From assembly GCF_041154505.1 (NCBI RefSeq), contig NZ_AP028672.1, forward strand, positions 4,442,501 through 4,506,500: a stretch of DNA of 64,000 bases, given 5' to 3'. The position numbers and the translations under genes were made by a program. The stretch is from Acidovorax sp. A79 (GTDB lineage Bacteria; Pseudomonadota; Gammaproteobacteria; Burkholderiales; Burkholderiaceae_C). Below the pieces are notes generated by a model. The model ran no database searches. It was not told the origin of the DNA and worked only from the letters and a program-made list of their open reading frames with translations. Each line of letters begins with the position of its first letter. Within the stretch, counting starts at the first letter, position 1. Positions 4,697 to 35,407 of the stretch are shown piece after piece.

Positions 4697-4974
4697 CGCG
4701 AAATTACATCATTAATGTGATGTGTGCTTTTTAGGCGAGTCATCATCCGCTGCTTGCATGCGCTGTCCTTTTCGGATTCCAGTGCTGCAATCACTATCCA
4801 CTTGTCTACGTCTTCGCCAATTCGCTCCGCCATCGTCCCAGCAATTGCTGGGCTGAGGTGTTGCCTGTATTGGCTGTTGTAAAGCGCCTTATCCGATAGG
4901 CCTAGGTCTGCAGTCCATTCCGGGATGCTTTTGATCTCAAGGGCTTTAGCTAGCAGGTTCATGGTTGTTTGCAT
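4693..4974 (-). CDS. prophage P1 regulator, DUF3693-like
   Basis: This 93-residue protein resembles the small DUF3693/Cro-like regulators of filamentous phages. It aligns with the product at 35408-35671 in prophage P2 through LSP-AG---E-GE---W--IAA-E-EK and RLKS. After RLKS the two C-termini are unrelated, and here the last ten residues lie in the probable attachment site and host DNA. A GAGGA ribosome site sits 7 bases before the start at 4974. The gene reads toward and overlaps nadK. The likely role is repressor or switch protein, inferred from position and from the operator-like repeats just upstream. Confidence 0.7.
4710..4715. other. candidate attL core (CATTAA) of P1
   Basis: CATTAA occurs 13 bases upstream of the nadK start. 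The regulator gene reads through it into host DNA. Joining the phage halves gives ACACCATTAATGTGATG, whose centre CATTAATG is a perfect palindrome, as expected for a serine recombinase crossover site. Six bases alone are weak evidence. Confidence 0.35.
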
Positions 4975-4990
4975 GGCGCTATCCTCATGT

Positions 4991-5049
4991 TGTGTACAAA
5001 CTACACAGTATGAGTAAGTTTACTTTCTTGCTTGTACTCAGTCTGTGTA
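4991..5049. promoter_or_regulatory. candidate operators of prophage P1
   Basis: A perfect inverted repeat TGTGTA-N5-TACACA lies at 4991-5007, immediately upstream of the regulator gene. A third TGTGTA half-site follows at 5044-5049, in the longer inverted pair TACACAG (5002-5008) / CTGTGTA (5043-5049). Between them AGTAA-GT-TTACT (5013-5024) forms another small dyad. A weak promoter toward the plus strand may use TTGTAC (5032-5037) and TTAAGG (5054-5059). Autoregulation by the adjacent regulator is an inference. Confidence 0.5.
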
Positions 5050-5188
5050 TTTGTTAAGGTTGCTCCTGTACTCGACTTGGGTACTTCATGGAGCTACCCA
5101 TGCCATCTATCCCCTCTTGCTCTCTCCCTGCCCCAATAGCCGCTGACACGGTGGTAGCTCACCCGGTCACGGTGGGCAGTGGGGGGAG

Positions 5189-5410
5189 CTATCGCTCCGC
5201 CCGCATCGGCGGTAAGCCTTCCGCGTCCTCTCGCTTCGCGATAGCTCTCTGCCGTTCTCCCAATCGCGATTCGTTGATCCCGTCCCGGATGGCACTCTTG
5301 ATCACCCAATACAGGATCAGGAAAAACAGGATCAGCGCGATGATTTCCAAAGCTATCGAAAAGATAGCAAAGCGCGTTAGTTCGGCTTCGAACGCCTTGA
5401 TATTGAACAT
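5189..5410 (-). CDS. small single-pass membrane protein of prophage P1
   Basis: The 73-residue product has one strongly hydrophobic helix at about residues 14-38 (FAIFSIALEIIALILFFLIL) followed by a charged tail. A good ribosome site (GAGAGGGG) lies about 9 bases before the ATG at 5410. It is on the same strand as the regulator gene and could form a leftward early unit with it. I recognise no family. It has no counterpart in P2, whose 146-residue membrane protein lies at a different place. Confidence 0.5.
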   Translation of the reverse strand: MFNIKAFEAELTRFAIFSIALEIIALILFFLILYWVIKSAIRDGINESRLGERQRAIAKREDAEGLPPMRAER

Positions 5411-5464
5411 TGCCGGGCCCCTCTCTGTGGGTCGGATCGTAGCTTCATCTGTGGGCTACTGACC

Positions 5465-5644
5465 ATGGCCACCGCCCCCAATCTCGATCTAAACGACAAG
5501 CTCGTAAAGCGCGGCCTGCGGGTTTCGTGGGGTGGCCTTCGTGCCTCCGTGCTGAGGGTTCGCACTGGCCGGTGTCTTGTCGAATTCCCGGGTGATCGTC
5601 CTAAGTGGCTGTCCTGCCGCTCCGTTCAGGTGGTCTCAGCATGA
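5465..5644 (+). CDS. small hypothetical phage protein (59 aa)
   Basis: A 59-codon frame begins ATGGCCACC at 5465 and ends with TGA at 5642-5644. The product starts MATAPNLDLNDKLVKRGL and is rich in Arg and beta-prone residues (ASVLRVRTGRCLVEFPGD), compatible with a small beta-barrel nucleic-acid-binding fold. It lies upstream of the ssDNA-binding protein in the rightward phage operon. No clear Shine-Dalgarno is visible, so support is modest. Confidence 0.4.
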   Translation: MATAPNLDLNDKLVKRGLRVSWGGLRASVLRVRTGRCLVEFPGDRPKWLSCRSVQVVSA

Positions 5645-5748
5645 GCGGCTACCCCTGACCCTGCCCCCACATGCCTCGCGGGTCGGGGCATGTGAGAGCA
5701 ACGTCGCTCGATCTTGGGCCATAGCTGCCCTCCACCGGAGAACAATCC

Positions 5749-6093
5749 ATGTCTGCCTACGCATCCCTGATGGAAATCATCCTGATCGAAGAGAAAGTTT
5801 CGAAGAACCCCAATCCCAAAACGGGCCAGCTGACCACCTGGAAAGAAGCACGTGCCATCGTGCGCAAAGAAGACGGCTCCGTTGCCACTGTCGGCATGTT
5901 CCGCGTCCCGGCCGTCCTGGAGGGGCAGGTCGGCCTGGGCCTTTACTCCGTTGGCTTCACGCTCGGCGTGCGTGATTACGGAGACAGTGCGGGCCGGATC
6001 GAAGCTCAGTTCGTGAGTCTCACGCCCGTGGATTCCAAGCTGATTAGCCGCGCCGCTGCAGCTCCTTCGCCTGCTGTTTCCAAGGCTTCGTAA
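5749..6093 (+). CDS. phage single-stranded DNA-binding protein (gpV-like)
   Basis: Filamentous phages coat progeny ssDNA with a small beta-barrel protein before extrusion. This 114-residue protein, in the expected place just before the coat genes, has the composition of that family, with a basic, beta-rich core (KEARAIVRKEDGSVATVGMF). A GGAG ribosome site lies about 8 bases before the ATG. It shows no clear residue identity to the 107-residue counterpart in P2 (32815-33138), so the assignment rests mainly on position and size. Confidence 0.6.
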   Translation: MSAYASLMEIILIEEKVSKNPNPKTGQLTTWKEARAIVRKEDGSVATVGMFRVPAVLEGQVGLGLYSVGFTLGVRDYGDSAGRIEAQFVSLTPVDSKLISRAAAAPSPAVSKAS

Positions 6094-6278
6094 TGTCTGC
6101 CGTTGACCTGGGCCACGTGGCCCAACAACTCGCCATCCTGGGCGTCTGCAGTGGCTTCGTAGGCGCTGCCCTGTGGACCCTCGTCACCGGCTCCCTCGGC
6201 GTCCTGGCCGCACGTTTGCACGCCCGCTCTGTGCGTCGTCAACGTATTGATGCTGCTCGTACCCGCGTGCAGGGCTGA
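6093..6278 (+). CDS. small inovirus membrane protein, conserved in P2
   Basis: The 61-residue product has a central hydrophobic helix (LAILGVCSGFVGAALWTLV) and a basic tail ending RRQRIDAARTRVQG. Its start overlaps the preceding stop by one base (TAATG). It is the best conserved of the small proteins: LAILG-CSGFVGAALWTL is shared with the product at 32416-32607 in P2. A minor coat or tip role is likely from position, but no named family is recognised. Confidence 0.65.
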   Translation: MSAVDLGHVAQQLAILGVCSGFVGAALWTLVTGSLGVLAARLHARSVRRQRIDAARTRVQG

Positions 6279-6290
6279 TCGGTTGTTCCC

Positions 6291-6512
6291 ATGTACTGCA
6301 TGCAACCCAGCACCACCACTATTTCCGAAGTGTCCTGCGATACGCCGGATGCCCTGGTTGTGCTCTCTCGTGTCGAGCTTGCGCAGTACAGCCCGTTTTA
6401 TCTAGATCCTGAATCAGCGATGGCAATAGGGGGCGCCATCCTGCTCGTAATGGCCGCGGCATGGTCGCTGCGTGCTGTGCGTAAAGCCCTCGAAACCAAA
6501 GAAAGTGAGTAA
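6291..6512 (+). CDS. minor coat-like membrane protein
   Basis: This 73-residue protein carries a Cys-containing N-terminal segment and one membrane helix near the C-terminus (AMAIGGAILLVMAAAWSL) followed by a basic stretch. P2 has an equivalent at 32220-32423 with the same arrangement. It lies directly upstream of the major coat gene, where minor coat genes are found in inoviruses. An alternative start at 6300 is possible. Confidence 0.55.
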   Translation: MYCMQPSTTTISEVSCDTPDALVVLSRVELAQYSPFYLDPESAMAIGGAILLVMAAAWSLRAVRKALETKESE

Positions 6513-6515
6513 CCA

Positions 6516-6785
6516 ATGAACTCCATCAAGCCCGCTCTGGAAAACGCTGTGAAGCGCCGTTTCCCTGTTCTCTCCCATGCTGGCCGTCTGCCTGCTGTGG
6601 CTATCGCTGCAGCAACGCTCCTGGCAACCAGTGGCGCACGTGCGGCTATCACGCTGCCTGACGTCGCCGAAATCACGACTGCCATTGCTGGTGTTGTGAC
6701 CATCGTGAGCTCCATCGGCATTGCCGTTTTGGGCGTGGTTGTCACAGCCAAGCTGTTCACCTGGATCCGCACCGCGCTGCGTTGA
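6516..6785 (+). CDS. major coat protein (gpVIII-like) of P1
   Basis: The 89-residue precursor has a long basic N-terminus and hydrophobic signal ending SGARA, with predicted cleavage after Ala43. The mature protein would be about 46 residues: a short acidic amphipathic N-terminus (AITLPDVAEITTA), one membrane helix, and a basic C-terminus (KLFTWIRTALR) that would face the DNA. That is the classical gpVIII plan. A terminator follows immediately, as after gene VIII in Ff phages. Confidence 0.85.
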   Translation: MNSIKPALENAVKRRFPVLSHAGRLPAVAIAAATLLATSGARAAITLPDVAEITTAIAGVVTIVSSIGIAVLGVVVTAKLFTWIRTALR

Positions 6786-6798
6786 TCGGGTAGTGCCC

Positions 6799-6834
6799 GG
6801 GGTGCGCTCTTTTCAAGGGTGTGCCCCTTTTTTT
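6799..6834 (+). terminator. terminator after the P1 coat gene
   Basis: GGGGTGCGC (6799-6807) pairs with GTGTGCCCC (6819-6827), including G-T pairs, and is followed by seven Ts. Its position after the coat gene would keep coat and upstream mRNAs abundant and downstream adsorption and assembly genes low, as in Ff phages. Confidence 0.7.
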
Positions 6835-6845
6835 ATGGGGGTTGT

Positions 6846-6905
6846 ATGGGCTTTTGGCTGCTTCTCGCGATGGTTCTTGGTGGCGTGCTCGTCTTTTGGC
6901 CGTAG
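6846..6905 (+). CDS. 19-residue hydrophobic peptide upstream of gIII
   Basis: A 20-codon frame encodes MGFWLLLAMVLGGVLVFWP, almost entirely membrane-spanning. It begins right after the terminator, with a run of five Gs 5' of the ATG, and ends 8 bases before the adsorption gene start. P2 has a frame of exactly the same length at the same place (31858-31917). The likely role is a tip or cap coat peptide of the pVII/pIX kind. The evidence is position and parallel occurrence, not homology. Confidence 0.45.
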   Translation: MGFWLLLAMVLGGVLVFWP

Positions 6906-6913
6906 GTGTCCGC

Positions 6914-8608
6914 ATGGCTGATCTTCTCCGCGTAGCGCTGCTGCGCGCTCTCCTGCTGCTCTCCCTCGTATGGTCCGTGCCGTCCTCGGCGCTTCAGGTC
7001 ATCACTACGTATCCGCCGAACACATGCAACGCTCAGAATCATCCTCGTGGGTACACGAACATTCCAGACGCTACGGCAACGTGGATTTGCGGCATCAGTG
7101 GGGTTGAGAGCAACTGTGGATGGAGCTACGTTTCTCCGACTTACGGATGGGATGGCACCGCCGCTAACGGCGTTGTTAATGGCGTGTGCAACCTCCCCCC
7201 TCCCGTCTATAGCTGCACCTCCGGCGCTACGCTCGGAACGAACGCGCACGGAGACCGTACGTGTACCTGCGATTCGGGCCTCACGGAACAAAACGGCCAA
7301 TGCAAACCACCGGTGACAAGCTGTCCGCCTGGGCAGCATGAGGAGGGTGGTGCATGTGTCCCCGACGCCTGCAAACCCAATGAAGTCCGCGTCAACGGCG
7401 TGTGTGTTCCAGAGCCACCGTGCGATCCCGGATATACGCGCATCAACGGCAAGTGCGTGAAAGACAAATGCCCGAAGGCTGGCACCAGCGCCGGGGAGGG
7501 CTGGGAGATGGACTCGGCGGCCACGGAATATGCATGCTTGGATCAGGGCGTGAGCTTCGATGGTCCCGTGCAGTACTGCATGATCAAGGTGGTCAACACC
7601 GTGGACGTCAGCTACAACGGCAAGACGTTCTACTATGGGAGCGGCACATACACGGGCGGTCAGTGCCAGGGCGGCACGGGTGGCGGTGATGGTCCCGGCA
7701 CTGGCCCCGGCGAGGGCCCTGGAGAGGGTCCGGGCGAAGGTCCTGGTACGGGTCCTGGCACCGGTCCTGGCACGAACCCTGGTGGCGGCCCCAAGCCACC
7801 GGACCCCAACAATCCGCCCCCTCCACCGCCGCCTCCGGTCCCCCCGGACAGCAATGGCAATTGCCCGCCTGGAACCCAGCGCTACAGCAACGGTAATTGC
7901 TATGCGCCTACCCCGCCGCCGCAGCCACCAAACAGCAATGGCACGTGCCCGCCTGGGACCTCCAAGGTAGGCACCAGCTGCGTCTCGCCCTCGCCGCCCG
8001 GCAAGCCCATACCGGAAAAACCAAACGAGAACGGCGACTGTGGCCCGGGCTTCCACCGTGAGGGAAATTGGTGCGTGATCAACCCCAAGCCGCCCGAAGG
8101 TGGCACCTGTCCCGTAGGCACGCATCTGGTCAATGAACTCTGCGTCTGGAACCCCGGTGTACCGCCCGATGGTGGTGGCAATGGCGATGGGGACGGCGAC
8201 GGTGATGGGGATGATGAGTCAGCCTTTGCGGGTAACTGCGCATCCGGTTTTTCCTGTGAAGGGGACGCGATTCAGTGCGCCATGGCGAAGGAGCAGCACC
8301 TCATGAATTGCAAGCTCCTCGATACCGAAAAGCCGGACCCTACGTACAAGGCGGCTGCGGATGGCTCGGATGCTAAGAGCGCGGACAAGCTGCGTGAGAA
8401 CGCTCAGCAGGTCAACGTCTCGAATTTTGATTCTTCCGGGCTTGGTTGGTCTAGGGCATGCCCTCCCGACCCGGGTTTCGATGTGGTGGGGCATAACTTC
8501 ACCATCCCGTTTTCTCAGGTCTGCGGGCCCCTGCATGTGCTCAGTTTGGCAAGCGTTGGCTTGACCCTGCTTAGCTGCTTGATGTGGGTCGTTGGGCGAA
8601 AGGATTAG
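6914..8608 (+). CDS. adsorption protein (pIII-like) of P1
   Basis: The start at 6914 gives 564 residues with a signal peptide (MADLLRVALLRALLLLSLVW...PSSA). The N-terminal receptor part contains many Cys in repeats of the form CPPG-X6/8-C and CDPGYTRINGKC. A glycine/proline linker follows (GPGEGPGEGPGEGPGTGP and a poly-Pro run, roughly residues 260-315), as in other inovirus adsorption proteins. The C-terminus ends in a membrane helix (LASVGLTLLSCLMWVVG). The first 433 codons are almost identical to the P2 gene, and the rest has diverged. The frame extends upstream to 6821, but the signal peptide fits the later start. Confidence 0.85.
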   Translation: MADLLRVALLRALLLLSLVWSVPSSALQVITTYPPNTCNAQNHPRGYTNIPDATATWICGISGVESNCGWSYVSPTYGWDGTAANGVVNGVCNLPPPVYSCTSGATLGTNAHGDRTCTCDSGLTEQNGQCKPPVTSCPPGQHEEGGACVPDACKPNEVRVNGVCVPEPPCDPGYTRINGKCVKDKCPKAGTSAGEGWEMDSAATEYACLDQGVSFDGPVQYCMIKVVNTVDVSYNGKTFYYGSGTYTGGQCQGGTGGGDGPGTGPGEGPGEGPGEGPGTGPGTGPGTNPGGGPKPPDPNNPPPPPPPPVPPDSNGNCPPGTQRYSNGNCYAPTPPPQPPNSNGTCPPGTSKVGTSCVSPSPPGKPIPEKPNENGDCGPGFHREGNWCVINPKPPEGGTCPVGTHLVNELCVWNPGVPPDGGGNGDGDGDGDGDDESAFAGNCASGFSCEGDAIQCAMAKEQHLMNCKLLDTEKPDPTYKAAADGSDAKSADKLRENAQQVNVSNFDSSGLGWSRACPPDPGFDVVGHNFTIPFSQVCGPLHVLSLASVGLTLLSCLMWVVGRKD

Positions 8609-8611
8609 CAC

Positions 8612-8914
8612 ATGCCATGGATCATTTCCGTACTGCTCGGCGGTCTTCTGCAAATTGTTGGATCGGTGGTGGGCCGTGTCCTCCTGGCTCTCGGTTTTGG
8701 CTTCGTTGAGTACGTGGGAATAAGCACGCTCATCGACTCCGCCAAGTCCTCGGCTACTTCACTGCTCGGTGGGGTGGGTGGCTCCATCATTGGTGACTGG
8801 GCGGGCTTCTTTCTCATTGATCAGCATGTGTCCATCATCCTGAGCGCAATTGGCGTCAAGGTCATGCTGAACGCTCTCGGTGGCGCTAGCGTGAAGCGCC
8901 TCGTGCAGAAGTAG
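8612..8914 (+). CDS. DUF2523 minor coat protein (gpVI-like)
   Basis: The 100-residue product has three hydrophobic stretches (IISVLLGGLLQIVGSVVGRVLL at the start, a central one, and SIILSAIGVKVMLNALG), which is the pattern of DUF2523 proteins. These sit between the adsorption and Zot genes in inoviruses and are taken to be pVI equivalents that release or anchor the virion end. The start lies 3 bases after the adsorption gene stop. P2 has the equivalent at 29888-30190, diverged in sequence. Confidence 0.8.
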   Translation: MPWIISVLLGGLLQIVGSVVGRVLLALGFGFVEYVGISTLIDSAKSSATSLLGGVGGSIIGDWAGFFLIDQHVSIILSAIGVKVMLNALGGASVKRLVQK

Positions 8915-8924
8915 GGGGCTTCCT

Positions 8925-10142
8925 GTGCCTATTAGCTTCGTCACGGGCCTGCCTCGGCAGGGCAAAACGCTGTTCACGTTCATCGAGGTGCAGCGCCGCG
9001 CCAAAGAGGAAAACCGTCCTGTCTATTACTGCAACATTCCCGGCGTTACGCTGCCCGGCTGGACTGAGATTGACCATCCTGATAAGTGGATGGATCTGCC
9101 CAATGACTCGATCATCGTGGTTGATGAGCTGCAGGATTTTTGGCCTGCCGCGTCCACCGGATCTAAGGTGCCGCTGCCTATTCTGGAGCTGTCCAAGCAC
9201 GGCAAGCGCGGTATTGATTTTTACTTCATCACGCAGGACCCCACGCTGGTTCACAACACGCCCCGCAAGCTCACGGAGACGCACTGGTACGTGGTCCGGG
9301 CCTTCGGTTCTGAGAGTGCCATTGCGTACAAATTCAGGGGTATGCAAACCGACCCTGGCAAGGTCGTAAACAAGGCGGAAAAGTACCCTTGGCGCTATCC
9401 AAAGGATGCATTCGGCAAAAAGGACAAGGCGGGCAACTGGATCACTCAGCCCTGGTACAAAAGTGCCGACGTGCACAACATCAAGCGGCGTATTCCGCTC
9501 AAGGTGTGGGCCATTCCCATTGCCGTTGCTGTTGCTGTCGGTGCTGCGTGGTTCGCGATTTCATCCGTCCTGAACCTCGGCACAAAGATGGCTGCGGTAG
9601 CTACTAGCAGTGCGCCTGGAGCGTCGCGTGCGGTCCCTCCCGGCGTGCCTGCGGGCGCAACATCCGTAGGCGTTGCCACCAAAGCCGCTCACTTGCCTTA
9701 TGAGGAGTGGTTGGCGCTTCAAAAACCGCGTATCGAGGGCTTCCCGCATACGGCTCCGGCTTATGACTCGGTGACACAGCCCGTCATTGCTCCGCGTCCT
9801 GCGGCCTGCGTGCACATGGGCAAAACTTGTAAGTGCTACACACAGCAAGCGACCTTGCTGCAGGTGCCGGGTGCGGTCTGTCTGCAGATAGTCGCACATG
9901 GGTTCTTCCAGGACTGGCGTGAGGAGCCGCCCACGGCATCGCGGTCCGTTGCGCCCAACGGGTCTAGCCAGGCTGCTCCGAAGCCGGCTGCGCCAGAAGT
10001 TAAGCAGGTGCGTACCGTGCCCATGCCGACTCCGCAGTTACAGCAGCCTGGCCAGATAACTCAGGCTGACATACCTCAGGCGCTGGGCATCAGAAACCCA
10101 GCGTTCAACGTCCACCCGCACAACAGCGGCGGTGCTGAGTGA
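8925..10142 (+). CDS. Zot-like phage assembly ATPase (gpI) of P1
   Basis: Zot/gpI proteins are inner-membrane ATPases that drive phage extrusion. The 405-residue product starts with GTG at 8925 after a GGGGG ribosome site. Walker A is GLPRQGKT near residue 8 and Walker B is SIIVVDELQDFW. One membrane helix lies at about residues 195-215 (VWAIPIAVAVAVGAAWFAI), followed by a periplasmic domain with a conserved Cys-containing segment (MGKTCKCYTQQATLLQ). The cytoplasmic domain differs strongly from P2 Zot, while the C-terminal domain is close to it. Confidence 0.88.
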   Translation: MPISFVTGLPRQGKTLFTFIEVQRRAKEENRPVYYCNIPGVTLPGWTEIDHPDKWMDLPNDSIIVVDELQDFWPAASTGSKVPLPILELSKHGKRGIDFYFITQDPTLVHNTPRKLTETHWYVVRAFGSESAIAYKFRGMQTDPGKVVNKAEKYPWRYPKDAFGKKDKAGNWITQPWYKSADVHNIKRRIPLKVWAIPIAVAVAVGAAWFAISSVLNLGTKMAAVATSSAPGASRAVPPGVPAGATSVGVATKAAHLPYEEWLALQKPRIEGFPHTAPAYDSVTQPVIAPRPAACVHMGKTCKCYTQQATLLQVPGAVCLQIVAHGFFQDWREEPPTASRSVAPNGSSQAAPKPAAPEVKQVRTVPMPTPQLQQPGQITQADIPQALGIRNPAFNVHPHNSGGAE

Positions 10143-10394
10143 TGCCTGCGCGTGCCTTCTCTGAGAGACAAACCGGGGGCCCCGAAGTGGCGAATAGCCA
10201 CGCGCCAAAGGCTCGGGGGTTGGGGTATGGGGCGACAGGCCCCATGGTGGACCGTTGTGCGTCCCGTGCCCTGTGCCACGGTCCACGGTCGCTAGATTGG
10301 GCAAGCGAAGCAGCGGCCCCGCAGACGCAAGCGAAGCGTGGCGGCGGGGCCGCGCGCAGCGCGGCCTAGATTTATCCAATAAACACTTTGGAAC
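10143..10394. other. P1 intergenic region with stacked hairpins (candidate packaging signal / origin)
   Basis: This non-coding stretch holds four perfect inverted repeats: ATGGGGC-GACAG-GCCCCAT (10227-10245); GTGGACCGT / ACGGTCCAC (10247-10255 / 10278-10286); GCGGCCCCGC / GCGGGGCCGC (10313-10322 / 10344-10353); and GGCCGCGC-GCA-GCGCGGCC (10348-10366), which competes with the previous one. The first hairpin and the block CTGAGAGACAAACCGGGG at 10161 are also present in P2 at the same place. Dense hairpins after the assembly gene match inovirus intergenic regions, which carry the packaging signal and strand origins. Confidence 0.6.
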
Positions 10395-10526
10395 ATGACC
10401 GACTACCGGCCTTTGATGTTGTGGCAGTGGCCTGATGGTCGATGCACTTGGCCGCATCTGGTTTGGAGATTTCCGCACCGCGAGGGCGGTCGGTTGGTAG
10501 CGCTCACCGGGGAGTGGTGGGACTAG
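10395..10526 (+). CDS. small Trp-rich hypothetical protein (43 aa)
   Basis: ATG at 10395 opens a 43-codon frame ending TAG at 10524-10526, with six tryptophans (MTDYRPLMLWQWPDGRCTW at the start, TGEWWD at the end). No strong ribosome site is visible. It sits between the hairpin-rich region and rep. It could be a small replication or regulatory protein, or chance. Confidence 0.3.
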   Translation: MTDYRPLMLWQWPDGRCTWPHLVWRFPHREGGRLVALTGEWWD

Positions 10527-10534
10527 AAAAAGGT

Positions 10535-10567
10535 GAACCCGGCATAGGCGGCAACCTATCCGGGTTC
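10535..10567 (+). promoter_or_regulatory. long hairpin in the P1 rep leader
   Basis: GAACCCGG (10535-10542) pairs with CCGGGTTC (10560-10567) and ATAGG pairs with CCTAT inside it, leaving a CGGCAA loop and one bulged C. There is no T-run, so it is not a standard terminator. It lies 28 bases before the rep start. It may be the Rep-nicked double-strand origin or a translational control structure. Confidence 0.45.
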
Positions 10568-10595
10568 GTGGTCACAACATAGATTGGGGTATGCC

Positions 10596-11480
10596 GTGGC
10601 AGTACGGATTCTAGAGAACTTCGATGGGTCGCGCTATGCGGTCATGAGCTACGGCTCGGGGCGGTTCAAGGTCAAGGCTCACGACTTGGGCAATGGGCAC
10701 ATGGAGGTGTCCGGTGTTGAGCGTGTGGACTGGAAAGAACTCGAATGGACCTCCGGCCAAATTCAAGATCACTTGGACATGCTGGCTGAAGCTGAGGAAG
10801 AAGATACCGACAAGCGTGCGAGGGCGCTGGCCATTGCGGCCAACAGGGCGAAAACGCGGGTTCGCAAGCTCTGTAAGGCGATGGGTGCGGACACGCTTAT
10901 GACCCTCACGTACAAAGCCAATCAGACGGATCAGGATCTGTGCAAAAGGCACCTAAAGGAGTTTGTCCGCAGGGTGCGTCGAGTCATCCCCGATTTCCGT
11001 GCCGTGTGCGGTTTTGAAGAACAAAAGCGCGGTGCATGGCATGTGCACATGGCAACGGTGAAGCTGCCTTCTAGCCTCAAGGCAAGCAACGGCGTTTTGG
11101 TGAAGTCCTTCAACGTCCTGCGGGCCATCTGGAGGTCAGTCACAAAGGAGCATGGCGGTAATGTCGATGTATCGGCCCGCAAACGGCATAGCCAGCGCTC
11201 TGCGGCACGCATTGCGGCCTACCTCTCAAAGTACATCACAAAGGCTTTCGAGGATGGGGAGAAGTGGTCGAACCGCTGGACCAAATTCGGCGATGTGACT
11301 TTGCCCGCGCCCATTGATCTGGGTGAGTTCGAGAGCATCGGTGATGCCATGAAAAACGCAGCGCTGTGCTATCTCTCGGGTCGTGTGGACACCATGCACA
11401 TGAGCCGGTGGGGAGACTGGTTCTATTTCGCGTTTGAGGGCGGTCCTGACAGTGGGGGGCACCATGACCCTGTCTGCTGA
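10596..11480 (+). CDS. rolling-circle replication initiator, HUH endonuclease type
   Basis: The protein carries the three HUH-Rep signatures in order: motif I LMTLTYK, motif II GAWHVHMATV (His-x-His metal site), and motif III AAYLSKYITKA with the catalytic Tyr. It would nick the plus-strand origin and start rolling-circle replication. GTG at 10596 with GGGG six bases upstream is preferred (294 aa); TTG at 10584 is in frame. The location downstream of zot is unusual, because P2 and most relatives carry rep upstream of the ssDNA-binding gene. The type also differs from P2's Rep. Confidence 0.8.
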   Translation: MAVRILENFDGSRYAVMSYGSGRFKVKAHDLGNGHMEVSGVERVDWKELEWTSGQIQDHLDMLAEAEEEDTDKRARALAIAANRAKTRVRKLCKAMGADTLMTLTYKANQTDQDLCKRHLKEFVRRVRRVIPDFRAVCGFEEQKRGAWHVHMATVKLPSSLKASNGVLVKSFNVLRAIWRSVTKEHGGNVDVSARKRHSQRSAARIAAYLSKYITKAFEDGEKWSNRWTKFGDVTLPAPIDLGEFESIGDAMKNAALCYLSGRVDTMHMSRWGDWFYFAFEGGPDSGGHHDPVC

Positions 11481-11703
11481 AAAACAGAGTGCCGTTACCG
11501 GTAACACCTCTGCCGTACGTGTGGCTGACCATCGGTCCCGCCATGTGCGTCTGGATGTGTCCGTAAATTTACCGATTGGTAAAACACTGGACGATTTAGC
11601 CTGTCAGTACGGCTGTAGTAAGGCGGTCGTGGTGCGGTCCCTTTTGAGGTTTGCGCTGACAAACCGGGACTGGCGTTCGCAAGGTCTTATCTGGGGGGAT
11701 TGA
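11464..11703 (+). CDS. small ribbon-helix-helix-like DNA-binding protein
   Basis: From ATG at 11464 the product has 79 residues. Residues from about 30 (HVRLDVSVNLPIGKTLDDLA) through SKAVVVRSLLRFAL have the strand-helix-helix pattern of Arc/CopG regulators. The start overlaps the end of rep by 17 bases, and the stop (TGA 11701-11703) abuts the recombinase ATG, so rep, this gene and the recombinase look like one translational unit. The role could be copy control or excision directionality. Confidence 0.55.
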   Translation: MTLSAEKQSAVTGNTSAVRVADHRSRHVRLDVSVNLPIGKTLDDLACQYGCSKAVVVRSLLRFALTNRDWRSQGLIWGD

Positions 11704-12294
11704 ATGGCTTTAATCGGTTATGCGCGTGTGTCCACGCAGGATCAGGATACGGCTCTGCAGCGCGATGCTTTGTCGCTGCATGGGGTTCAACGTGTTTACG
11801 TTGAGTCTGGGTCTGGAGTAGGGCCCCGGCCCCAGTTGCAAGTTGCTCTCGGTTCTCTGGGCAGGGGTGATACGCTGGTCGTTTGGAAGCTGGATCGTGT
11901 GGCCCGTAGTTTGTCTGACTTGCTGGCGATTCAGTCTAGGCTTAGGGCTGGAGGAGCCATGATTCGGAGTCTCACTGAGCCTCTGGACACTACAAGTCCC
12001 TTCGGTGAGTTTACGTTTCAGGTTTTGGGCGCTGTCGCACAGCTTGAGCGGTCCATGATTCGCGAACGTGTGATGGCTGGTCAGGCTGCCGCTCGTGCTC
12101 GGGGTAAGAGCTGGGGTAGGGCGCGTAGCATCAGCGATGCCGATGTGCTGTCCATCGTTGACATGTGGCGTTCAGGCGTCTATACGCAGGGGGAACTGGC
12201 CTCGATCTGGGGTGTTTCCGTCGCGTGTTTACGCGACACAATCCATAGATTCGAGGGCCGTGGCCGATGGGCTTCTCGTTCGTTACACCATTAA
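11704..12294 (+). CDS. serine recombinase of prophage P1
   Basis: The 196-residue product is a small resolvase/invertase-type serine recombinase. Its features are GYARVSTQDQ with nucleophile Ser10, WKLDRVARSLSDLL, LTEPLDTTSPFGEF, QLERSMIRERV, and a C-terminal helix-turn-helix (TQGELASIWGVSVACLRDTI). It is the last gene before hrcA and is the probable integrase of this phage. Most filamentous phages instead borrow host XerCD. The final codons lie in the presumed attachment site. Confidence 0.85.
   Translation: MALIGYARVSTQDQDTALQRDALSLHGVQRVYVESGSGVGPRPQLQVALGSLGRGDTLVVWKLDRVARSLSDLLAIQSRLRAGGAMIRSLTEPLDTTSPFGEFTFQVLGAVAQLERSMIRERVMAGQAAARARGKSWGRARSISDADVLSIVDMWRSGVYTQGELASIWGVSVACLRDTIHRFEGRGRWASRSLHH
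12289..12294. other. candidate attR core (CATTAA) of P1
   Basis: The second CATTAA forms the last two codons of the recombinase and lies 9 bases before the hrcA ATG. Joining the host halves gives an empty site with only 28 bases between the nadK and hrcA start codons. Confidence 0.35.
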
Positions 12295-25898: not shown

Positions 25899-26262
25899 TG
25901 GATGCCGGGTCGTTGATGGATACCGTTCAGGATGACCGAAGGTGCGCCACCACGGTGCTTGCCATGGCCAGCCGTAGCGAGTTCGGCTTGTGCGGAAATG
26001 AAAGGCCTGTCGGATGCCCTTCATTGTGATCGGCCACGCGAAGACAAAGAGGTCCCCACTGCGGGGGTGCCATTCTTGCGTTCTGGCGGAGACTGTGGTT
26101 TTCGAACCAAACACTTGTAGGGATTTCTAGAGTGCAGCGTGTTTGTTCGCTTGCCTGAGGGGACTCTTCTAGTTGCGTATGCCGCGACCATGCGGATCGT
26201 GTGTCGCAAATAGCACCGCTGATAGACTTTCCGCTATCGGCCAGGAGCGGGCGTCAGAAGTT
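25899..26262. other. gene-poor accessory stretch
   Basis: No convincing coding frame is visible here. TCGGCCAGGAGC (26238-26249) recurs at 26633-26644, flanking the next gene, which suggests past cassette-type or repeat-mediated insertion. Confidence 0.4.
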
Positions 26263-26574
26263 ATGAAAAGCAGAATCATGTACATCGAAGCGAAGTCGGG
26301 CGGCCTTACCGGGCCTGCGCGAATTGGCCGTGTGACTGTGTCGAAGACAGGTGCGACTCTGTATTACCAAGGTAAAGCGTTTCAGAGCCTCAAAGGCACT
26401 GGATTCAAGTCAAACTACTTTGACGTCGAGACTGGTGAACACTATTGGATTTCGGGTCCGCGTCGAGACGGTAGAGATGCGCTGTACGAGACAAATGTTC
26501 AGCCAGCCATTGATGCCGACATTGCCGATGAGTACTGGACAAAAATCAGGCAACAGCCATCCAAAGCGTTGTAG
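26263..26574 (+). CDS. conserved small protein of unknown function
   Basis: From ATG 26263 the product has 103 residues (MKSRIMYIEAKSGGLTGPAR...). It belongs to a widespread small family with IGRVTVSKTGATLYYQGK, FQSLKGTGFKSNYFDVETGE and YWISGPRRDGRD. Database entries of this family are sometimes labelled deoxyxylulose-phosphate synthase, which its size rules out. Small standalone members are common in integron cassettes and islands. Confidence 0.7.
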   Translation: MKSRIMYIEAKSGGLTGPARIGRVTVSKTGATLYYQGKAFQSLKGTGFKSNYFDVETGEHYWISGPRRDGRDALYETNVQPAIDADIADEYWTKIRQQPSKAL

Positions 26575-26668
26575 AGCAGTTTCCGCGACCTAGCTTCAAG
26601 CCGATGTTCGCCGAACGCAGGGGGCAGAATTCGGCCAGGAGCAGTCGGTGGCGGCTAGCAAAGCGGAC

Positions 26669-27523: not shown

Positions 27524-28102
27524 CTATCTTAAGCTGCTGTGCTCGGGTTTCGTGATTCTGTAAACTGCACGTTTGACACTGGAAGTGTGCACGCCAAAGT
27601 GATCCGCGAGGGCCTGCATTGTGTAGTTGCCTGAGAGGTACATGCGGACTAATTTTGCCTCGGTCTTTTGGGGCATAGAACGTGCCCTTCCGAACGTTTG
27701 GCCTCTTGCCTTAGCGGCCTCAAATCCAGCGGCGCAGCGCTCACGAATCATGGCCCGTTCGAACTCCGCGAAGGCGCCCAGCATGTGGCAGAACATGCGG
27801 CCCGCTGGGCTGCTGGTGTCGATAGATTCCGTAAGGCTGCGGAACGTGACGCCAGCTTGCTCCAGGGACTCCAGTAGGCGAAGAAGGTCGCGCAGACTGC
27901 GGGACAGGCGATCGAGCTTGTAGACCACAAGAACATCACCGGGGCGCAGGCGAGCAAGGAGGCTTTGCAGCTCAGGGCGTTGCGCGACGCCGCTGCGCTT
28001 TTCCTGCACAACGTGTTTGATTCCCGCGCGTTTGAAGGCCGCGAGCTGCACGGCGGTGTTCTGCTCGGTGGTGGAAACGCGCGCGTAGCCGTAGGAGGTC
28101 AA
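27524..28102 (-). CDS. serine recombinase of prophage P2
   Basis: The 192-residue resolvase/invertase-type enzyme has GYARVSTTEQN with the nucleophilic Ser, VVYKLDRLSRSLRDLL, LTESIDTSSPAGRMF, FERAMIRERC, and a C-terminal helix-turn-helix (TMQALADHFGVHTSSVKRAV). As in P1 it is the terminal gene of the phage and its probable integrase. It overlaps the preceding 28099-28539 gene by four bases. Confidence 0.85.
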   Translation of the reverse strand: MTSYGYARVSTTEQNTAVQLAAFKRAGIKHVVQEKRSGVAQRPELQSLLARLRPGDVLVVYKLDRLSRSLRDLLRLLESLEQAGVTFRSLTESIDTSSPAGRMFCHMLGAFAEFERAMIRERCAAGFEAAKARGQTFGRARSMPQKTEAKLVRMYLSGNYTMQALADHFGVHTSSVKRAVYRITKPEHSSLR

Positions 28103-28702: not shown

Positions 28703-29884
28703 TCAGCCGCCTTGACTGCCGCTGTTGTGCGGGTGGACATTGAACGCAGGGTTTCTGATGCCCAGCGCCTGGGGTATGTCTGCCTGGGTGATCTGGCCAG
28801 GCTGCTGTAACTGCGGGGTCGGCATGGGCACCGTGCGCACCTGCTGCGGTGGTGGCTCTGCGGGGCGCCCCCGGACCTGCATAGGCTGCATCTGCGGGCC
28901 CTGAATGGCGTGTTGGCCCTGTTGCTGGTTCTGCTGCTGCCAGTCCACAAAGAAGCCCTGCGCCACGATCTGCAGGCACACGGGGCCGCTGACCTGCAGA
29001 AGCGTGGCCTGCTGTGAGTAGCACTTGCAAGTTTTGCCCATCGTGATGCACGCCGCAGGGTATGGCGCCACGGTGGGCTTGGTCACCTCGTCATAGGCCG
29101 GGGCCGTGTGCGGGAAGTCTTTGAGGCGCGGTGAGCGCTCTTGGATGTACTGGTCGGGCGTGAGCTTTGCCGCTACCTGCTGCGGCATCGCATTGGCCTG
29201 CGCCTGGGCCTCGCTGGCGGTTTTCGCCTGCACCTTCGCCTCGGTCTTTGCCAGCAGCTTGGACGATGCAAACCAGATCAGCAGCGGGATGAGCAGCACG
29301 CAGGCCAGGAATACCCAGAGCTTCGCAGGCAGCTTCTTTTTGCCGGTGTGCAGGCTGGCGCTTTTGTACCAGCCGTAGACCTCCTTTGGGAAGGCTTGCA
29401 TGGTCACCGTGCCCGTCTTGCCGCTGCCATCCTTCTCGCAGTTGGGATTGACGGCGGACCACTCCAGCACGCTGACCATATCGACGCCAAAGGAGCGTTT
29501 GAGGTGCCGGTGCCATCCAGGCGGGCCGACGAGCCTGCGCACGAAGCTATCGAGGTTCTGGGGATGCTGGGTGACCAGATAGAAATCAAAGCCGCGCCTG
29601 CGGTGCTCTGCCAGCATCTTGACGGGGTCCGGCACTGCGGCCCCTGCCGGGCGGTTTGGCAGATCATTGTGTGCCTCATCGATCAGAAAGATCGTGCCAT
29701 CCGGCTCTGCCTGCCAATCCTTGAAGTCGATTTTTTTCCAGCCCGCAAGCTCCCCGCCTTCGACGGGTTCAAAGCGCCCGTTGTGACACACGGGGCGGTT
29801 TTCCTTGAGCTGGCGCTCACGTACCCATTTGAGGGTGTTCAGGGTCTTTCCCGCGCCATTGGCGCCGCTGATGATGTGCAGCAT
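28703..29884 (-). CDS. Zot-like phage assembly ATPase of P2
   Basis: The 393-residue product has Walker A GANGAGKT near residue 8, Walker B TIFLIDEAHNDL, one membrane helix at about residues 190-208 (LWVFLACVLLIPLLIWFA) and a periplasmic domain. FPHTAPAYDEVTKP, ITMGKTCKCYSQQATLLQV and the last about 40 residues closely match P1 Zot, while the ATPase domain is clearly different. It starts 3 bases after the DUF2523 gene. Confidence 0.87.
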   Translation of the reverse strand: MLHIISGANGAGKTLNTLKWVRERQLKENRPVCHNGRFEPVEGGELAGWKKIDFKDWQAEPDGTIFLIDEAHNDLPNRPAGAAVPDPVKMLAEHRRRGFDFYLVTQHPQNLDSFVRRLVGPPGWHRHLKRSFGVDMVSVLEWSAVNPNCEKDGSGKTGTVTMQAFPKEVYGWYKSASLHTGKKKLPAKLWVFLACVLLIPLLIWFASSKLLAKTEAKVQAKTASEAQAQANAMPQQVAAKLTPDQYIQERSPRLKDFPHTAPAYDEVTKPTVAPYPAACITMGKTCKCYSQQATLLQVSGPVCLQIVAQGFFVDWQQQNQQQGQHAIQGPQMQPMQVRGRPAEPPPQQVRTVPMPTPQLQQPGQITQADIPQALGIRNPAFNVHPHNSGSQGG

Positions 29885-30193: not shown

Positions 30194-31879
30194 TTACCCC
30201 CTCACAAGAATACGAGCGGCCAGCAGCAGCGACACCGCGACCATGATGTTTCCAATGACCGCGATGCTTGGATAGATCTTGCTGAAAGGCAGGGTCATAG
30301 ACTGGCCCATCACAACGACGCTCAGGTCCTGAATGCATTGACCACCACCGCCCAGTGCATCGCTCATGTTGATGCGGCCCGTCATGGTCTCGGACTTGTT
30401 ACCGGGAAGGTCTTTTGTCTGCACGCCTTCCTTGCCCTTTTCCTTGTCGTAGAGCTCAGACTCCGCGCTTTTGTCGTCGAACAGCTTACAGGCCCTGATG
30501 TGCTGCTCCTTCGCAATCGCGCACTGAATGGCATCCCCTTCGCAATTGAAGCCTGCAGCACATGAGCCCGCAAAACCGCTATCCCCATCACCGTCGCCGT
30601 CCCCATTGCCATTGCCACCACCATCGGGCGGTACACCGGGATTCCAGACGCAGAGTTCATTGACCAAGTGCGTGCCCACGGGACAGGTGCCGCCTTCGGG
30701 AGGTTTGGGGTTGATCACGCACCAATTCCCCTCGCGGTGGAAGCCTGGACCACAGTCGCCGTTCTCGTTTGGTTTTTCCGGGATGGGCTTGCCGGGCGGC
30801 GAGGGCGAGACGCAGCTGGTGCCTACCTTGGAGGTTCCAGGTGGGCACGTGCCATTGCTGTTTGGTGGCTGCGGCGGCGGGGTGGGCGCATAGCAATTAC
30901 CGTTGCTGTAGCGCTGGGTTCCAGGCGGGCAATTGCCATTGCTGTCCGGGGGGACCGGAGGCGGCGGTGGAGGGGGCGGATTGTTGGGGTCCGGTGGCTT
31001 GGGGCCGCCACCAGGGTTCGTGCCAGGACCGGTGCCAGGACCCGTACCAGGACCTTCGCCCGGACCCTCTCCAGGGCCCTCGCCGGGGCCAGTGCCGGGA
31101 CCATCACCGCCACCCGTGCCGCCCTGGCACTGACCGCCCGTGTATGTGCCGCTCCCATAGTAGAACGTCTTGCCGTTGTAGCTGACGTCCACGGTGTTGA
31201 CCACCTTGATCATGCAGTACTGCACGGGACCATCGAAGCTCACGCCCTGATCCAAGCATGCATATTCCGTGGCCGCCGAGTCCATCTCCCAGCCCTCCCC
31301 GGCGCTGGTGCCAGCCTTCGGGCATTTGTCTTTCACGCACTTGCCGTTGATGCGCGTATATCCGGGATCGCACGGTGGCTCTGGAACACACACGCCGTTG
31401 ACGCGGACTTCATTGGGTTTGCAGGCGTCGGGGACACATGCACCACCCTCCTCATGCTGCCCAGGCGGACAGCTTGTCACCGGTGGTTTGCATTGGCCGT
31501 TTTGTTCCGTGAGGCCCGAATCGCAGGTACACGTACGGTCTCCGTGCGCGTTCGTTCCGAGCGTAGCGCCGGAGGTGCAGCTATTGACGGGAGGGGGGAG
31601 GTTGCACACGCCATTAACAACGCCGTTAGCGGCGGTGCCATCCCATCCGTAAGTCGGAGAAACGTAGCTCCATCCACAGTTGCTCTCAACCCCACTGATG
31701 CCGCAAATCCACGTTGCCGTAGCGTCTGGAATGTTCGTGTACCCACGAGGATGATTCTGAGCGTTGCATGTGTTCGGCGGATACGTAGTGATGACCTGGA
31801 GCGCCGAGGACGGCACGGACCATACGAGGGAGAGCAGCAGGAGAGCGCGCACCAGCGCTACGCGGAGAAGATCAGCCAT
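30194..31879 (-). CDS. adsorption protein (pIII-like) of P2
   Basis: ATG at 31879 gives 561 residues. The signal peptide, Cys-repeat receptor part and Gly/Pro linker are almost the same as in P1 over 433 codons with no gaps. The homology begins at the ATG and ends at the GAT codon at 30581-30583. The remaining about 128 residues (SGFAGSCAAGFNCEGDAIQC...) only resemble P1 and end in a membrane helix (IAVIGNIMVAVSLLLAARIL). Confidence 0.85.
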   Translation of the reverse strand: MADLLRVALVRALLLLSLVWSVPSSALQVITTYPPNTCNAQNHPRGYTNIPDATATWICGISGVESNCGWSYVSPTYGWDGTAANGVVNGVCNLPPPVNSCTSGATLGTNAHGDRTCTCDSGLTEQNGQCKPPVTSCPPGQHEEGGACVPDACKPNEVRVNGVCVPEPPCDPGYTRINGKCVKDKCPKAGTSAGEGWEMDSAATEYACLDQGVSFDGPVQYCMIKVVNTVDVSYNGKTFYYGSGTYTGGQCQGGTGGGDGPGTGPGEGPGEGPGEGPGTGPGTGPGTNPGGGPKPPDPNNPPPPPPPPVPPDSNGNCPPGTQRYSNGNCYAPTPPPQPPNSNGTCPPGTSKVGTSCVSPSPPGKPIPEKPNENGDCGPGFHREGNWCVINPKPPEGGTCPVGTHLVNELCVWNPGVPPDGGGNGNGDGDGDGDSGFAGSCAAGFNCEGDAIQCAIAKEQHIRACKLFDDKSAESELYDKEKGKEGVQTKDLPGNKSETMTGRINMSDALGGGGQCIQDLSVVVMGQSMTLPFSKIYPSIAVIGNIMVAVSLLLAARILVRG

Positions 31880-31917
31880 GCGGCCCCCAGGATTGCGACG
31901 ATGACGAAGAGGCCCAT
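31858..31917 (-). CDS. 19-residue hydrophobic peptide upstream of P2 gIII
   Basis: A 20-codon frame encodes MGLFVIVAILGAAWLIFSA. It matches the P1 peptide in length, position and first two residues. Here its last codons overlap the first 22 bases of the adsorption gene in another frame. A minor coat (pVII/pIX-like) role is possible. Confidence 0.45.
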   Translation of the reverse strand: MGLFVIVAILGAAWLIFSA

Positions 31918-32000: not shown

Positions 32001-32216
32001 TTAGGAGATAGCGCGGCGCACCCACTTGAAGGCGGCAATCGCCACCACGACCAGCAGCACGGCGGCGCCGATCAGGCCGATGGGCGCGATGGTGTCGCCG
32101 ATCTCGGAGACCACGCCGGTCACATCGATGGCGGCGTGCGCGTTGTTGACAAGAGCCAGGGCACCGACTGCGGCAGCAGTGGCAAAGCGGCGGGTTTGTG
32201 CATTGATGCGGTTCAT
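32001..32216 (-). CDS. major coat protein (gpVIII-like) of P2
   Basis: The 71-residue precursor has a signal ending NNAHA (cleavage after about residue 28). The mature protein of about 43 residues has an acidic start (AIDVTGVVSEIGDTI), a membrane helix, and a basic end (FKWVRRAIS). Only the plan is shared with P1 coat. Confidence 0.85.
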   Translation of the reverse strand: MNRINAQTRRFATAAAVGALALVNNAHAAIDVTGVVSEIGDTIAPIGLIGAAVLLVVVAIAAFKWVRRAIS

Positions 32217-33161: not shown

Positions 33162-34385
33162 TTATGCGGCGAACGCAGCGGGGCCAACGCTGGTGCCAGA
33201 GACTTTTTTGAACATCGCTTGATAGACGCGCTCGACCTCCTGACGCTTGAACTTCGACAGGCGGCCAGGAAGCTCGGCGCAGTTCTCTATGAAGCCCGCC
33301 AGGGTTTCTCGGTCCATGTAGAGGAAGGCCAGGGCGGCGGATTTGCCAGCGGTGGAGAAGAACCAACGTGCGTTGCGCGTGCACTCGGCCATCAGCGTTT
33401 CGAGCGGTAGGCGCGGCTCTGTTTTGATGGGTTCGGCCTGGGCCACTTCGCCGTGCTCGGCCAGCAGCAGCGCGTGCCATTCGCTGGTGCCTGCAAAGAA
33501 GTTGGCGGGCCTGCGCAGCAGATCGACAGGGAGCAAGCGCTTTTGGTTGCCGTAGCGCACTTCGATGCGCTGCCAGCCGGTGGCATCCTGTTCGCCGTAC
33601 AGCTGCACACCCTTGTCATAGACGTTGGTCTGCTTGCCTGCAGCCTTGCTGCCGAAGTAGAAGGATCGGCCCACGCCACCAGCGCGCCATGCACCCACGC
33701 AGCTGTGCTTAGGCCGGTGGCCGAGGTGGTCCATCAAACCCGCGTCATAGTCGGCGCCGATGCGGTCCATGCCGCCTGAGATGCCCTCGAAAAAATCAAG
33801 CGCCAGATCGCAACGCGTGACCACTGCGCGGTGCTCTTCCAGGTAGTCGGCCATCTGGTAGTGCCAGCCAGGACGGGCAAAGGTGCAGGCCGCGCCGTAG
33901 AGGTTGCAGTGCAGGGTTTTGGCCTGGGCGGACTGTCGCGGGCTGTCGCCGCTGGACAGGCATCCCACCCAGCCGCATTCGGAGCCTGCGCGCATGATCG
34001 ACCAGCGGTAGCGGTAGAAGTCGTGGCCCTTCTTCAGCTCAGGGTCCACGGTGAAGCCATCGCCCAACAGTTCGCACACGTTCTCTGCAAGCTCCAGGGC
34101 CTGGGTGGTGGCTGCGAAGTCGGGATCATCCAGGCCACGGAGGATGCGGGCCAAATCGTGGCGTCGACGGTCTTCTTCGCTGATGGTGTGGGCGGATTTT
34201 TCCCAATCGGCGGTGTCATCGCGTGGGGGAAACAGGGTGTCCACCGTGGGGATGGGAGCGAACCGGAGATTCAACGTGAAACGCAGCCAGTCGATATGAA
34301 CTGGCGAACCCGTCACGGTGCGCTCTTCATGCAAACGAAGCAGGACTTCGTTTCCATCGAGGACGAGGGGGGTGGCGATCGTCAC
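33162..34385 (-). CDS. phage replication initiation protein, Rep_trans type
   Basis: The 407-residue product has the Rep_trans (PF02486-like) landmarks VHIDWLRFTLNLRF near the start, VVTRCDLALDFFEG in the middle, and NVYDKGVQLYGE followed by WQRIEVRYGNQKR. It starts the rolling-circle replication of P2. The start is GTG at 34385 with GGGGG 8 bases upstream, overlapping the stop of the small gene before it. It is unrelated in type to the P1 Rep. Confidence 0.82.
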   Translation of the reverse strand: MTIATPLVLDGNEVLLRLHEERTVTGSPVHIDWLRFTLNLRFAPIPTVDTLFPPRDDTADWEKSAHTISEEDRRRHDLARILRGLDDPDFAATTQALELAENVCELLGDGFTVDPELKKGHDFYRYRWSIMRAGSECGWVGCLSSGDSPRQSAQAKTLHCNLYGAACTFARPGWHYQMADYLEEHRAVVTRCDLALDFFEGISGGMDRIGADYDAGLMDHLGHRPKHSCVGAWRAGGVGRSFYFGSKAAGKQTNVYDKGVQLYGEQDATGWQRIEVRYGNQKRLLPVDLLRRPANFFAGTSEWHALLLAEHGEVAQAEPIKTEPRLPLETLMAECTRNARWFFSTAGKSAALAFLYMDRETLAGFIENCAELPGRLSKFKRQEVERVYQAMFKKVSGTSVGPAAFAA

Positions 34386-35399: not shown

Positions 35400-35407
35400 T
35401 TATGAAT

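What the first reader, a model, noticed from the sequence alone, without database searches (positions are those of the whole stretch)
6914..8212. Two prophages share a nearly identical receptor-binding half of the adsorption gene
Codons 1-433 of the P1 and P2 adsorption genes align without gaps and with only a few mismatches (P1 6914-8212, P2 30581-31879). The sequence just upstream and just downstream is unrelated or only distantly similar. The left edge is the start codon; the right edge follows a GATGGGGAT-type low-complexity Asp-Gly run. This is a sharp module exchange of the receptor domain between phages whose coat, pVI and replication genes have diverged. Both phages should therefore use the same host receptor, and one may exclude the other.
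Basis: seen in the sequence. Interest (0 to 1): 0.75.

Follow-up and report, generated by a model that had tools for sequence, protein, structure and literature searches.

The report
Two prophages share a receptor module
Two otherwise very different filamentous viruses integrated in one bacterial chromosome carry almost the same front half of the protein that such viruses use to attach to cells, because a piece of that gene was recently exchanged between them; relatives suggest that this front half is a frequently swapped part.

Summary
Confirmed, with a corrected right edge. P1 pIII (6914-8608 +) and P2 pIII (30194-31879 -) differ at 19 of 1299 ungapped positions over codons 1-433. Identity falls in steps: 3 mismatches in the first 995 nt, 16 in the next 304 (15 silent), about 70% to 8303, then background. 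The backbones belong to two deep lineages: Zot and the pIII C-domain each reject P1+P2 as a clade.

Sibling strain G037 is a control: it carries P2 at the same place, most genes 95.7-98.6% identical, but with a different pIII front half; it lacks P1 and its P1 site is empty. So P1 and P2 probably exchanged DNA after the strains split. The N-terminal cassette was found in no other phage or genome searched, one chance-level match aside.

Across 34 phages (P1, P2 included) a 56-122-residue N-terminal cassette is hypervariable and uncoupled from Zot, while the C-domain mostly follows Zot. Most likely it is a swappable receptor-binding tip. Receptor function and exclusion are inferred. Direction of the last exchange is unresolved; P1's module is ultimately P2-clade-like.

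The parts
4704..12294 (+). Prophage P1 (about 7.6 kb inovirus) between nadK and hrcA; imperfect 12-bp core (11 of 12) at 4704-4715 and 12283-12294
   Evidence: Empty site in sibling strain G037, whose contig matches 3700-4715 and 12283-13000 with a 12-bp overlap; core letters read. The gene names nadK and hrcA are my reading of the ORFs, not a search.
5749..6093 (+). P1 ssDNA-binding protein (pV-like)
   Evidence: phrog_2866, E 1.9e-5
6516..6785 (+). P1 major coat protein
   Evidence: Phage_Coat_B, E 4.9e-10
6914..8608 (+). P1 pIII-like adsorption protein, 564 aa
   Evidence: phrog_4352, E 2.1e-29, function unnamed; place between coat and pVI/Zot; signal-like start and hydrophobic C-terminus read by eye
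6910..7908 (+). Recently exchanged tract in P1 (4 nt before ATG to codon 332)
   Evidence: 3 mismatches in 995 coding nt against P2; change point at nt 995
7909..8212 (+). Older mosaic part of the module in P1 (EB-like Cys repeats to the Asp-Gly run)
   Evidence: 16 of 304 mismatches, 15 silent; at these 16 sites sibling P2s agrees with P1 at 6, with P2 at 9, with neither at 1
6968..7258 (+). Hypervariable N-terminal cassette of P1 pIII (codons about 19-115)
   Evidence: 99% identical in P2 and at or below 0.28 in the other P1 pairs printed; no other carrier beyond chance level found
8213..8608 (+). P1 pIII C-terminal domain, native to the P1 lineage
   Evidence: Groups with L021, L024, L026 in the C-domain tree; 43% nt identical to P2 over codons 463-564
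8612..8914 (+). P1 pVI-like minor coat protein
   Evidence: DUF2523, E 1.6e-14
8925..10142 (+). P1 Zot-like assembly ATPase (pI)
   Evidence: Zot, E 3e-11; phrog_197
10584..11480 (+). P1 rolling-circle replication protein
   Evidence: PF23343, E 4e-13; phrog_3419
11704..12294 (+). P1 serine recombinase
   Evidence: Resolvase, E 2.4e-37
30194..31879 (-). P2 pIII-like adsorption protein, 561 aa
   Evidence: phrog_4352, E 1.8e-24; same place in the P2 gene order
30885..31883 (-). Recently exchanged tract in P2 (mirror of 6910-7908)
   Evidence: in sibling P2s the same stretch is diverged
30581..30884 (-). Older mosaic part of the module in P2
29888..30190 (-). P2 pVI-like minor coat protein
   Evidence: DUF2523, E 1.6e-19
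28703..29884 (-). P2 Zot-like assembly ATPase
   Evidence: Zot, E 1.4e-12
32001..32216 (-). P2 major coat protein
   Evidence: Phage_Coat_B, E 8.2e-18
33162..34385 (-). P2 replication initiation protein
   Evidence: Rep_trans, E 6e-17; phrog_453
27524..28102 (-). P2 serine recombinase
   Evidence: Resolvase, E 5.5e-44

Best explanation
P1 and P2 are two inoviruses (filamentous phages) of different deep lineages integrated in one Acidovorax-like chromosome. Their pIII adsorption proteins have a replaceable front: a conserved start of about 18 nt, a hypervariable tip cassette, a conserved Cys-rich EB-like spine, a second variable domain, Gly/Pro linkers and EB-like repeats; the C-terminal domain mostly stays with its own pVI, coat and assembly genes. 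After this strain split from its sibling G037, homologous recombination (double crossover or gene conversion) made the two pIII genes nearly identical from about the start codon to codon 332. Shown: the tract, its edges, the backbone conflict, and the difference from the sibling prophage. Inferred: that the tract is younger than the strain split (assumes similar rates), that the cassette binds the primary host receptor (probably a pilus), that the C-domain stays because it must fit pVI and coat, and that both phages now use one receptor. Direction of the last event is not resolved.
For: Tract: 3 of 995 mismatches. Sibling: P2s in G037 lies between the same two host flanks; 11 tested backbone segments are 95.7-100% identical and the recombinase 93.8%, host flanks 95.6% and 98.2%. 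Its pIII has only 35-53% nt identity to P2 over codons 1-140 and 84-94% over codons 141-332; P1 is absent there. Trees: Zot puts P1 with L021 and P2 with L022 and rejects P1+P2 (p-AU 1e-40, 30 of 57 loci used); the pIII C-domain does the same (p-AU 3e-7, 22 of 34 used); the spine plus second domain joins P1 and P2 as identical rows. Population, 561 pairs of 34 phages: Zot identity (first 180 aa) correlates with the C-domain (rho 0.78), hardly with the N cassette (rho 0.07). Of 130 pairs with Zot at least 0.90, 111 have N below 0.40; of 325 pairs with Zot below 0.75, only P1-P2 has N at or above 0.45. A similar start sequence is seen in both lineages. Cassette elsewhere: 0 of 46 other genus genomes, 1 of 398 other order genomes at chance level (41% over 39 aa, E 9e-4), none confirmed in viral contigs.
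Against: No receptor or binding evidence and no structure. pIII is not the only place where P2 and P2s differ: 35280-35518 and 26249-27475 have no good alignment, and 35519-35745 is 89.4%. P2 and P2s differ by about 7-8% over codons 333-433, more than most of the backbone, so at least one further event is needed. The C-domain is not wholly tied to the backbone: L064 has Zot 0.97-1.00 but C-domain only 0.55-0.58 against L025, L056-L059 and L067. Direction cannot be fixed with one sibling strain. The 34 phages hold near-duplicates (L025/L055, L026/L068, L027/L054, L032/L063), so pairs are not independent; the start of L031 was not found properly.
Confidence: 0.85

Rival explanations
1. Direction A (a variant of the best explanation): P1 overwrote P2. 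P1 arrived in this strain with its own pIII allele, itself of P2-clade type from an older transfer, and the resident P2 was converted over codons 1-332.
For: The sibling without P1 has P2 without the module, and the only other carrier of the cassette found is P1.
Against: P2's codons 333-433 should then be native, about 2-4% from P2s, but differ by about 7-8%. N-cassette turnover at near-constant Zot is common, so P2's difference from P2s does not need P1.
Confidence: 0.45
2. Direction B (a variant of the best explanation): P2 was the donor. P2 (or P2s) changed its front half by an ordinary swap within the P2 lineage, and P1 then took codons 1-332 from P2.
For: P1 carries further patches whose matches lie in P2-lineage phages, 6114-6244 and the Zot tail. 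P1's codons 141-332 are 84-93% nt identical to P2s and L020 but 69-81% to its own-lineage relative L021. P1 has the CCGC before ATG that is usual in the P2 lineage.
Against: Those patches are about 9% or more diverged from P2 and so belong to an older transfer, not to the last one.
Confidence: 0.45
3. Assembly or polishing artefact: one copy was duplicated into the other locus.
For: The tract is nearly identical and 1 kb long, and raw reads were not available.
Against: The copies differ at 19 sites and in their flanks. P2's flanks are collinear with P2s in a separate assembly, and the DNA just before P1's ATG resembles that of P1-lineage relatives L021 and L024. The genome is in 2 contigs. A misjoin would swap flanks rather than copy a tract inside unrelated flanks (reasoning).
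Confidence: 0.03
4. No exchange; the region is conserved by selection from a common ancestor.
For: Both genes are pIII homologues and the Cys spine is conserved in the 13 fragments aligned and the 26 rows.
Against: The N cassette is at chance similarity in most other pairs, yet 99% identical here; silent sites are nearly identical too; the compared relatives of each lineage carry other cassettes.
Confidence: 0.01

Closest known systems
Ff (M13/f1/fd) pIII: N1-linker-N2-linker-C domain adsorption protein
   Same: Same gene place between coat and pVI/assembly genes; signal-like start, N-terminal part, Gly-rich linkers and a hydrophobic C-terminus; N part exchanged and C part kept here. In Ff, N2 binds the F pilus and N1 binds TolA (passages of PMC10175506).
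   Different: No sequence relation to a solved pIII was found; EB-like Cys repeats and Pro-rich linkers; domain roles not tested.
Mosaic vibriophage VFJphi
   Same: Natural recombination between two filamentous phage groups of one host (passages of PMC3731265).
   Different: Its replication, Zot and pIII genes are all above 94% similar to one parent (fs2), with a 700-bp region from the other group elsewhere; here the exchange lies inside pIII and a sibling strain brackets it.
Receptor-module exchange in tail fibres and tailspikes of tailed phages (recalled, from no call)
   Same: Receptor-binding parts move between backbones while virion-anchoring parts stay.
   Different: Different virus group and protein. 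I did not look for special diversifying machinery such as reverse transcriptases.

Membership tests
Inovirus (Inoviridae-like filamentous phage) | Zot/pI-type assembly ATPase | tested here: met
   PF05707 in both, E 3e-11 and 1.4e-12
Inovirus (Inoviridae-like filamentous phage) | Inovirus-type major coat protein upstream of pIII | tested here: met
   PF05356 in both, E 4.9e-10 and 8.2e-18
Inovirus (Inoviridae-like filamentous phage) | Rolling-circle replication protein and conserved gene order | tested here: met
   PF23343 in P1, PF02486 in P2; order coat-pIII-pVI-Zot in both
pIII adsorption protein | Place between coat and pVI, signal peptide, linkers, C-terminal anchor | tested here: met
   Gene order; signal-like start, linkers and hydrophobic C-terminus read from the sequence; no signal or membrane predictor was run
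pIII adsorption protein | Sequence or fold homology to Ff or CTXphi pIII domains | tested here: inconclusive
   No PDB match with the profile up to E 1; four weak, unrelated hits with the single sequence, best E 0.023; no fold comparison could be run
pIII adsorption protein | Binding of a pilus and of TolA | not testable with these tools
   No binding or infection data
Recent recombination tract between co-resident prophages | Near identity bounded by diverged flanks, and tree conflict | tested here: met
Recent recombination tract between co-resident prophages | Absence of the tract in the same prophage of a strain lacking the partner | tested here: met
   P2s in G037 differs there and the P1 site is empty; one strain only

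The most novel reading that the evidence does not exclude
Inovirus pIII tips in this group form a shared cassette pool: co-infecting phages of unrelated backbones swap the host-recognition tip by recombination between a conserved start-codon anchor and a conserved Cys-rich spine, so a resident prophage and a newcomer can converge on one receptor within the divergence time of two strains.
Probability: 0.4. Interest if true: 0.65.

Novelty: new member of a known kind. Interest (0 to 1): 0.45.

Why it matters
pIII is the adsorption protein of filamentous phages, and mosaicism between such phages is known. Here one strain shows an exchange inside pIII, its sibling shows the same prophage without it, and comparison of 34 phages shows a tip that varies independently of the backbone while the anchor domain mostly does not. 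That makes the roles of tip and anchor, and competition between co-resident filamentous phages for one receptor, directly testable.

Tried and rejected
Same-strand comparison at a fixed offset showed nothing, because P2 is on the minus strand. The phage collection gave no DNA or protein match. The one scan of genome contigs confirmed 1 of 18 pattern stretches, Acidovorax sp. sif1233; its contig length, 1582249, equals that of G037:C11, so I treat G037 as that strain. The pair L029/L030 of genome G019 looked like a second instance, but no Zot was detected in either locus, L029 ends at its contig end, and they lie beside large ORFs, one of them RHS-like by eye; I take them for orphan pIII-like genes. 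Misassembly and common descent were considered and rejected (see rivals).

What was left out of counts: of 66 loci, 8 had no detected Zot and 1 no pIII frame, leaving 57; 34 of the 57 carry the EEGG anchor used for cassettes. Cassette starts were chosen by a rule and by hand for 9 of 34. The trees used 30 of 57 (Zot) and 22 of 34 (spine, C-domain), are quick searches, and the program warned of long branches meeting in the Zot and spine trees.

Papers: VFJphi, f1 cryo-EM, C. taiwanensis prophage, MDA, cryptic inoviruses and the amber-display paper were seen only as passages found by term; the rest only as listings. Seven listings showed no title or abstract start about this cassette exchange; most papers were not opened, so this is not proof of absence.

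Full report
What is there. The window (contig 1 of a two-contig, 5.87 Mb genome) holds two filamentous-phage prophages. P1 (about 4704-12294) has a coat protein, pIII-like protein, pVI-like protein, Zot-like ATPase, a PF23343 replication protein and a serine recombinase. P2 (roughly 27.5-35.7 kb, minus strand) has the same structural order with a PF02486 replication protein. The host is Acidovorax-like: its same-species genome G037 has a contig of the same length as one of Acidovorax sp. sif1233.

The observation. Codons 1-433 of the two pIII genes align without gaps, with 19 mismatches in 1299 nt. They are not even: 3 in the first 995 nt and 16 in the last 304 (Fisher p 3e-8; best change point at nt 995; 0 of 1000 shuffles as strong). 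Of the 16, 15 are silent. Identity is about 70% from 8213 to 8303 and at background after that; upstream it stops 4 nt before the ATG. So the recent tract is 6910-7908, not 6914-8212, and its right end lies among the first EB-like Cys repeats after the Pro-rich linker.

The backbones differ. Zot is 41% identical in protein. In a Zot tree of 30 loci P1 joins L021 (support 86) and P2 joins L022 (100), and a P1+P2 clade is rejected (p-AU 1e-40). The pIII C-domain tree of 22 loci agrees (p-AU 3e-7), while in the tree of the Cys spine plus second domain P1 and P2 are identical, with L022 (82) and then L021 (96) next. These are quick trees, with long-branch warnings for the Zot and spine trees.

A before-and-after control. 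G037 carries the P2 sibling (P2s) between the same host flanks. Rep, coat, pVI, Zot and the pIII C-domain are 97.1-98.0% identical to P2; five other small segments are 95.7-98.6%, the stretch before pIII 100% (121 nt) and the recombinase 93.8%; host flanks are 98.2% and 95.6%. Inside pIII the pair differs: 35-53% over codons 1-140, 84-94% over codons 141-332, 92% over codons 333-433, 80% over 434-462, then 96%. Against a simple picture, pIII is not the only difference: 35280-35518 and 26249-27475 show no good alignment, and 35519-35745 is 89.4%. P1 is absent from G037: the nadK-hrcA site is unoccupied, with a 12-bp overlap of the two flanks. At 0.3%, the P1-P2 tract is several times less diverged than the P2-P2s backbone (mostly 2-4%), hence probably younger than the split, if rates are similar.

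The cassette is local. A 77-aa cassette query hit only P1 and P2 in 47 genus genomes, gave one chance-level match besides them in 399 sampled order genomes, and no confirmed relative in a pattern-based scan of viral contigs. This fits an exchange inside this cell line or its recent past, within what was sampled.

Generality. Of 66 loci, 57 gave both pIII and Zot, and 34 of these, P1 and P2 included, have the anchor used here. In 22 of 34 the chosen start reads MA[NDHY]LxR and in 9 more a close variant; L026, L068 and L031 do not. Then come 56-122 residues at chance similarity in most pairs (median identity 0.24), followed by a Cys spine with invariant HEEGG columns in the aligned sets. Zot identity (first 180 aa) tracks the C-domain (rho 0.78) but hardly the N cassette (rho 0.07; N against C-domain 0.12). 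Of 130 pairs with Zot at or above 0.90, 111 have N below 0.40. Of 325 pairs with Zot below 0.75, one, P1-P2, has N at or above 0.45. The second domain also crosses the two Zot lineages, in at least two groups: P1/L021 with L022, and L024/L026 with L023/L051/L052. An exception to the fixed C-domain is L064, whose C-domain is 0.55-0.58 against relatives with Zot 0.97-1.00. Near-duplicate loci are among the 34, so pairs are not independent.

Direction. P1's codons 141-332 are closer to P2s and L020 (84-93%) than to L021 (69-81%). Its 6114-6244 patch and its Zot tail (10001-10184) matched P2-lineage loci and, for the first, L076, which has no detected Zot; no P1-lineage locus matched. So P1 probably took up P2-lineage DNA at some earlier time; those patches are about 9% or more diverged from P2. 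For the last tract both directions need the same number of events by my count, and at the 16 sites of codons 333-433 P2s agrees with P1 at 6, with P2 at 9 and with neither at 1 (L020). I leave it open.

Mechanism. Shown: tract, edges, conflict, difference from the sibling. Inferred from Ff pIII (N2 binds the pilus, N1 binds TolA; C domain at the virion tip; passages of PMC10175506): the variable tip and the second domain contact the host, while the C-domain must fit pVI and coat and so mostly stays. Recombination probably used the start anchor on the left and the conserved Cys spine or repeats on the right. If the tip is the receptor binder, P1 and P2 now share a receptor. Exclusion by resident pIII is reported for Ff (passages of PMC7070036) and is only a prediction here.

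Limits. No fold was obtained. No PDB relative was found by sequence. One sibling strain only. Verdict: real, well bracketed, and an instance of phage mosaicism at the adsorption protein.

Noticed in passing
4704-4715 and 12283-12294; L023, L026, L031: The nadK-hrcA gap may be a recurrent inovirus insertion site: three other same-genus loci with related pIII genes also match the host DNA on both sides of P1.
   Followed up: partly
6114-6244 and 9725-10184: Two further patches of P1 (a small ORF, and the Zot C-terminal tail with the DNA after it) match P2-lineage phages and no P1-lineage locus held here, so P1 is a wider mosaic.
   Followed up: partly
L029 6327-7622; L030 (reversed) 6064-7584: Genome G019 has two pIII-like genes with nearly the same N cassette (91% nt over 1375 nt), with no Zot detected in the loci, beside large ORFs, one RHS-like by eye.
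   Followed up: partly
11704-12294 and 27524-28102: Both phages carry a small serine recombinase; P1's right 12-bp core is the last 12 nt of its recombinase gene.
   Followed up: no
35280-35745: The tRNA-Ser edge of P2, with a small ORF at 35402-35671, aligns poorly with sibling P2s (no alignment over 35280-35518, 89.4% over 35519-35745), so this edge has also changed.
   Followed up: no
L064: L064 has a Zot 0.97-1.00 identical to several relatives but a C-domain only 0.55-0.58 identical, so the pIII C-domain can be exchanged too.
   Followed up: no
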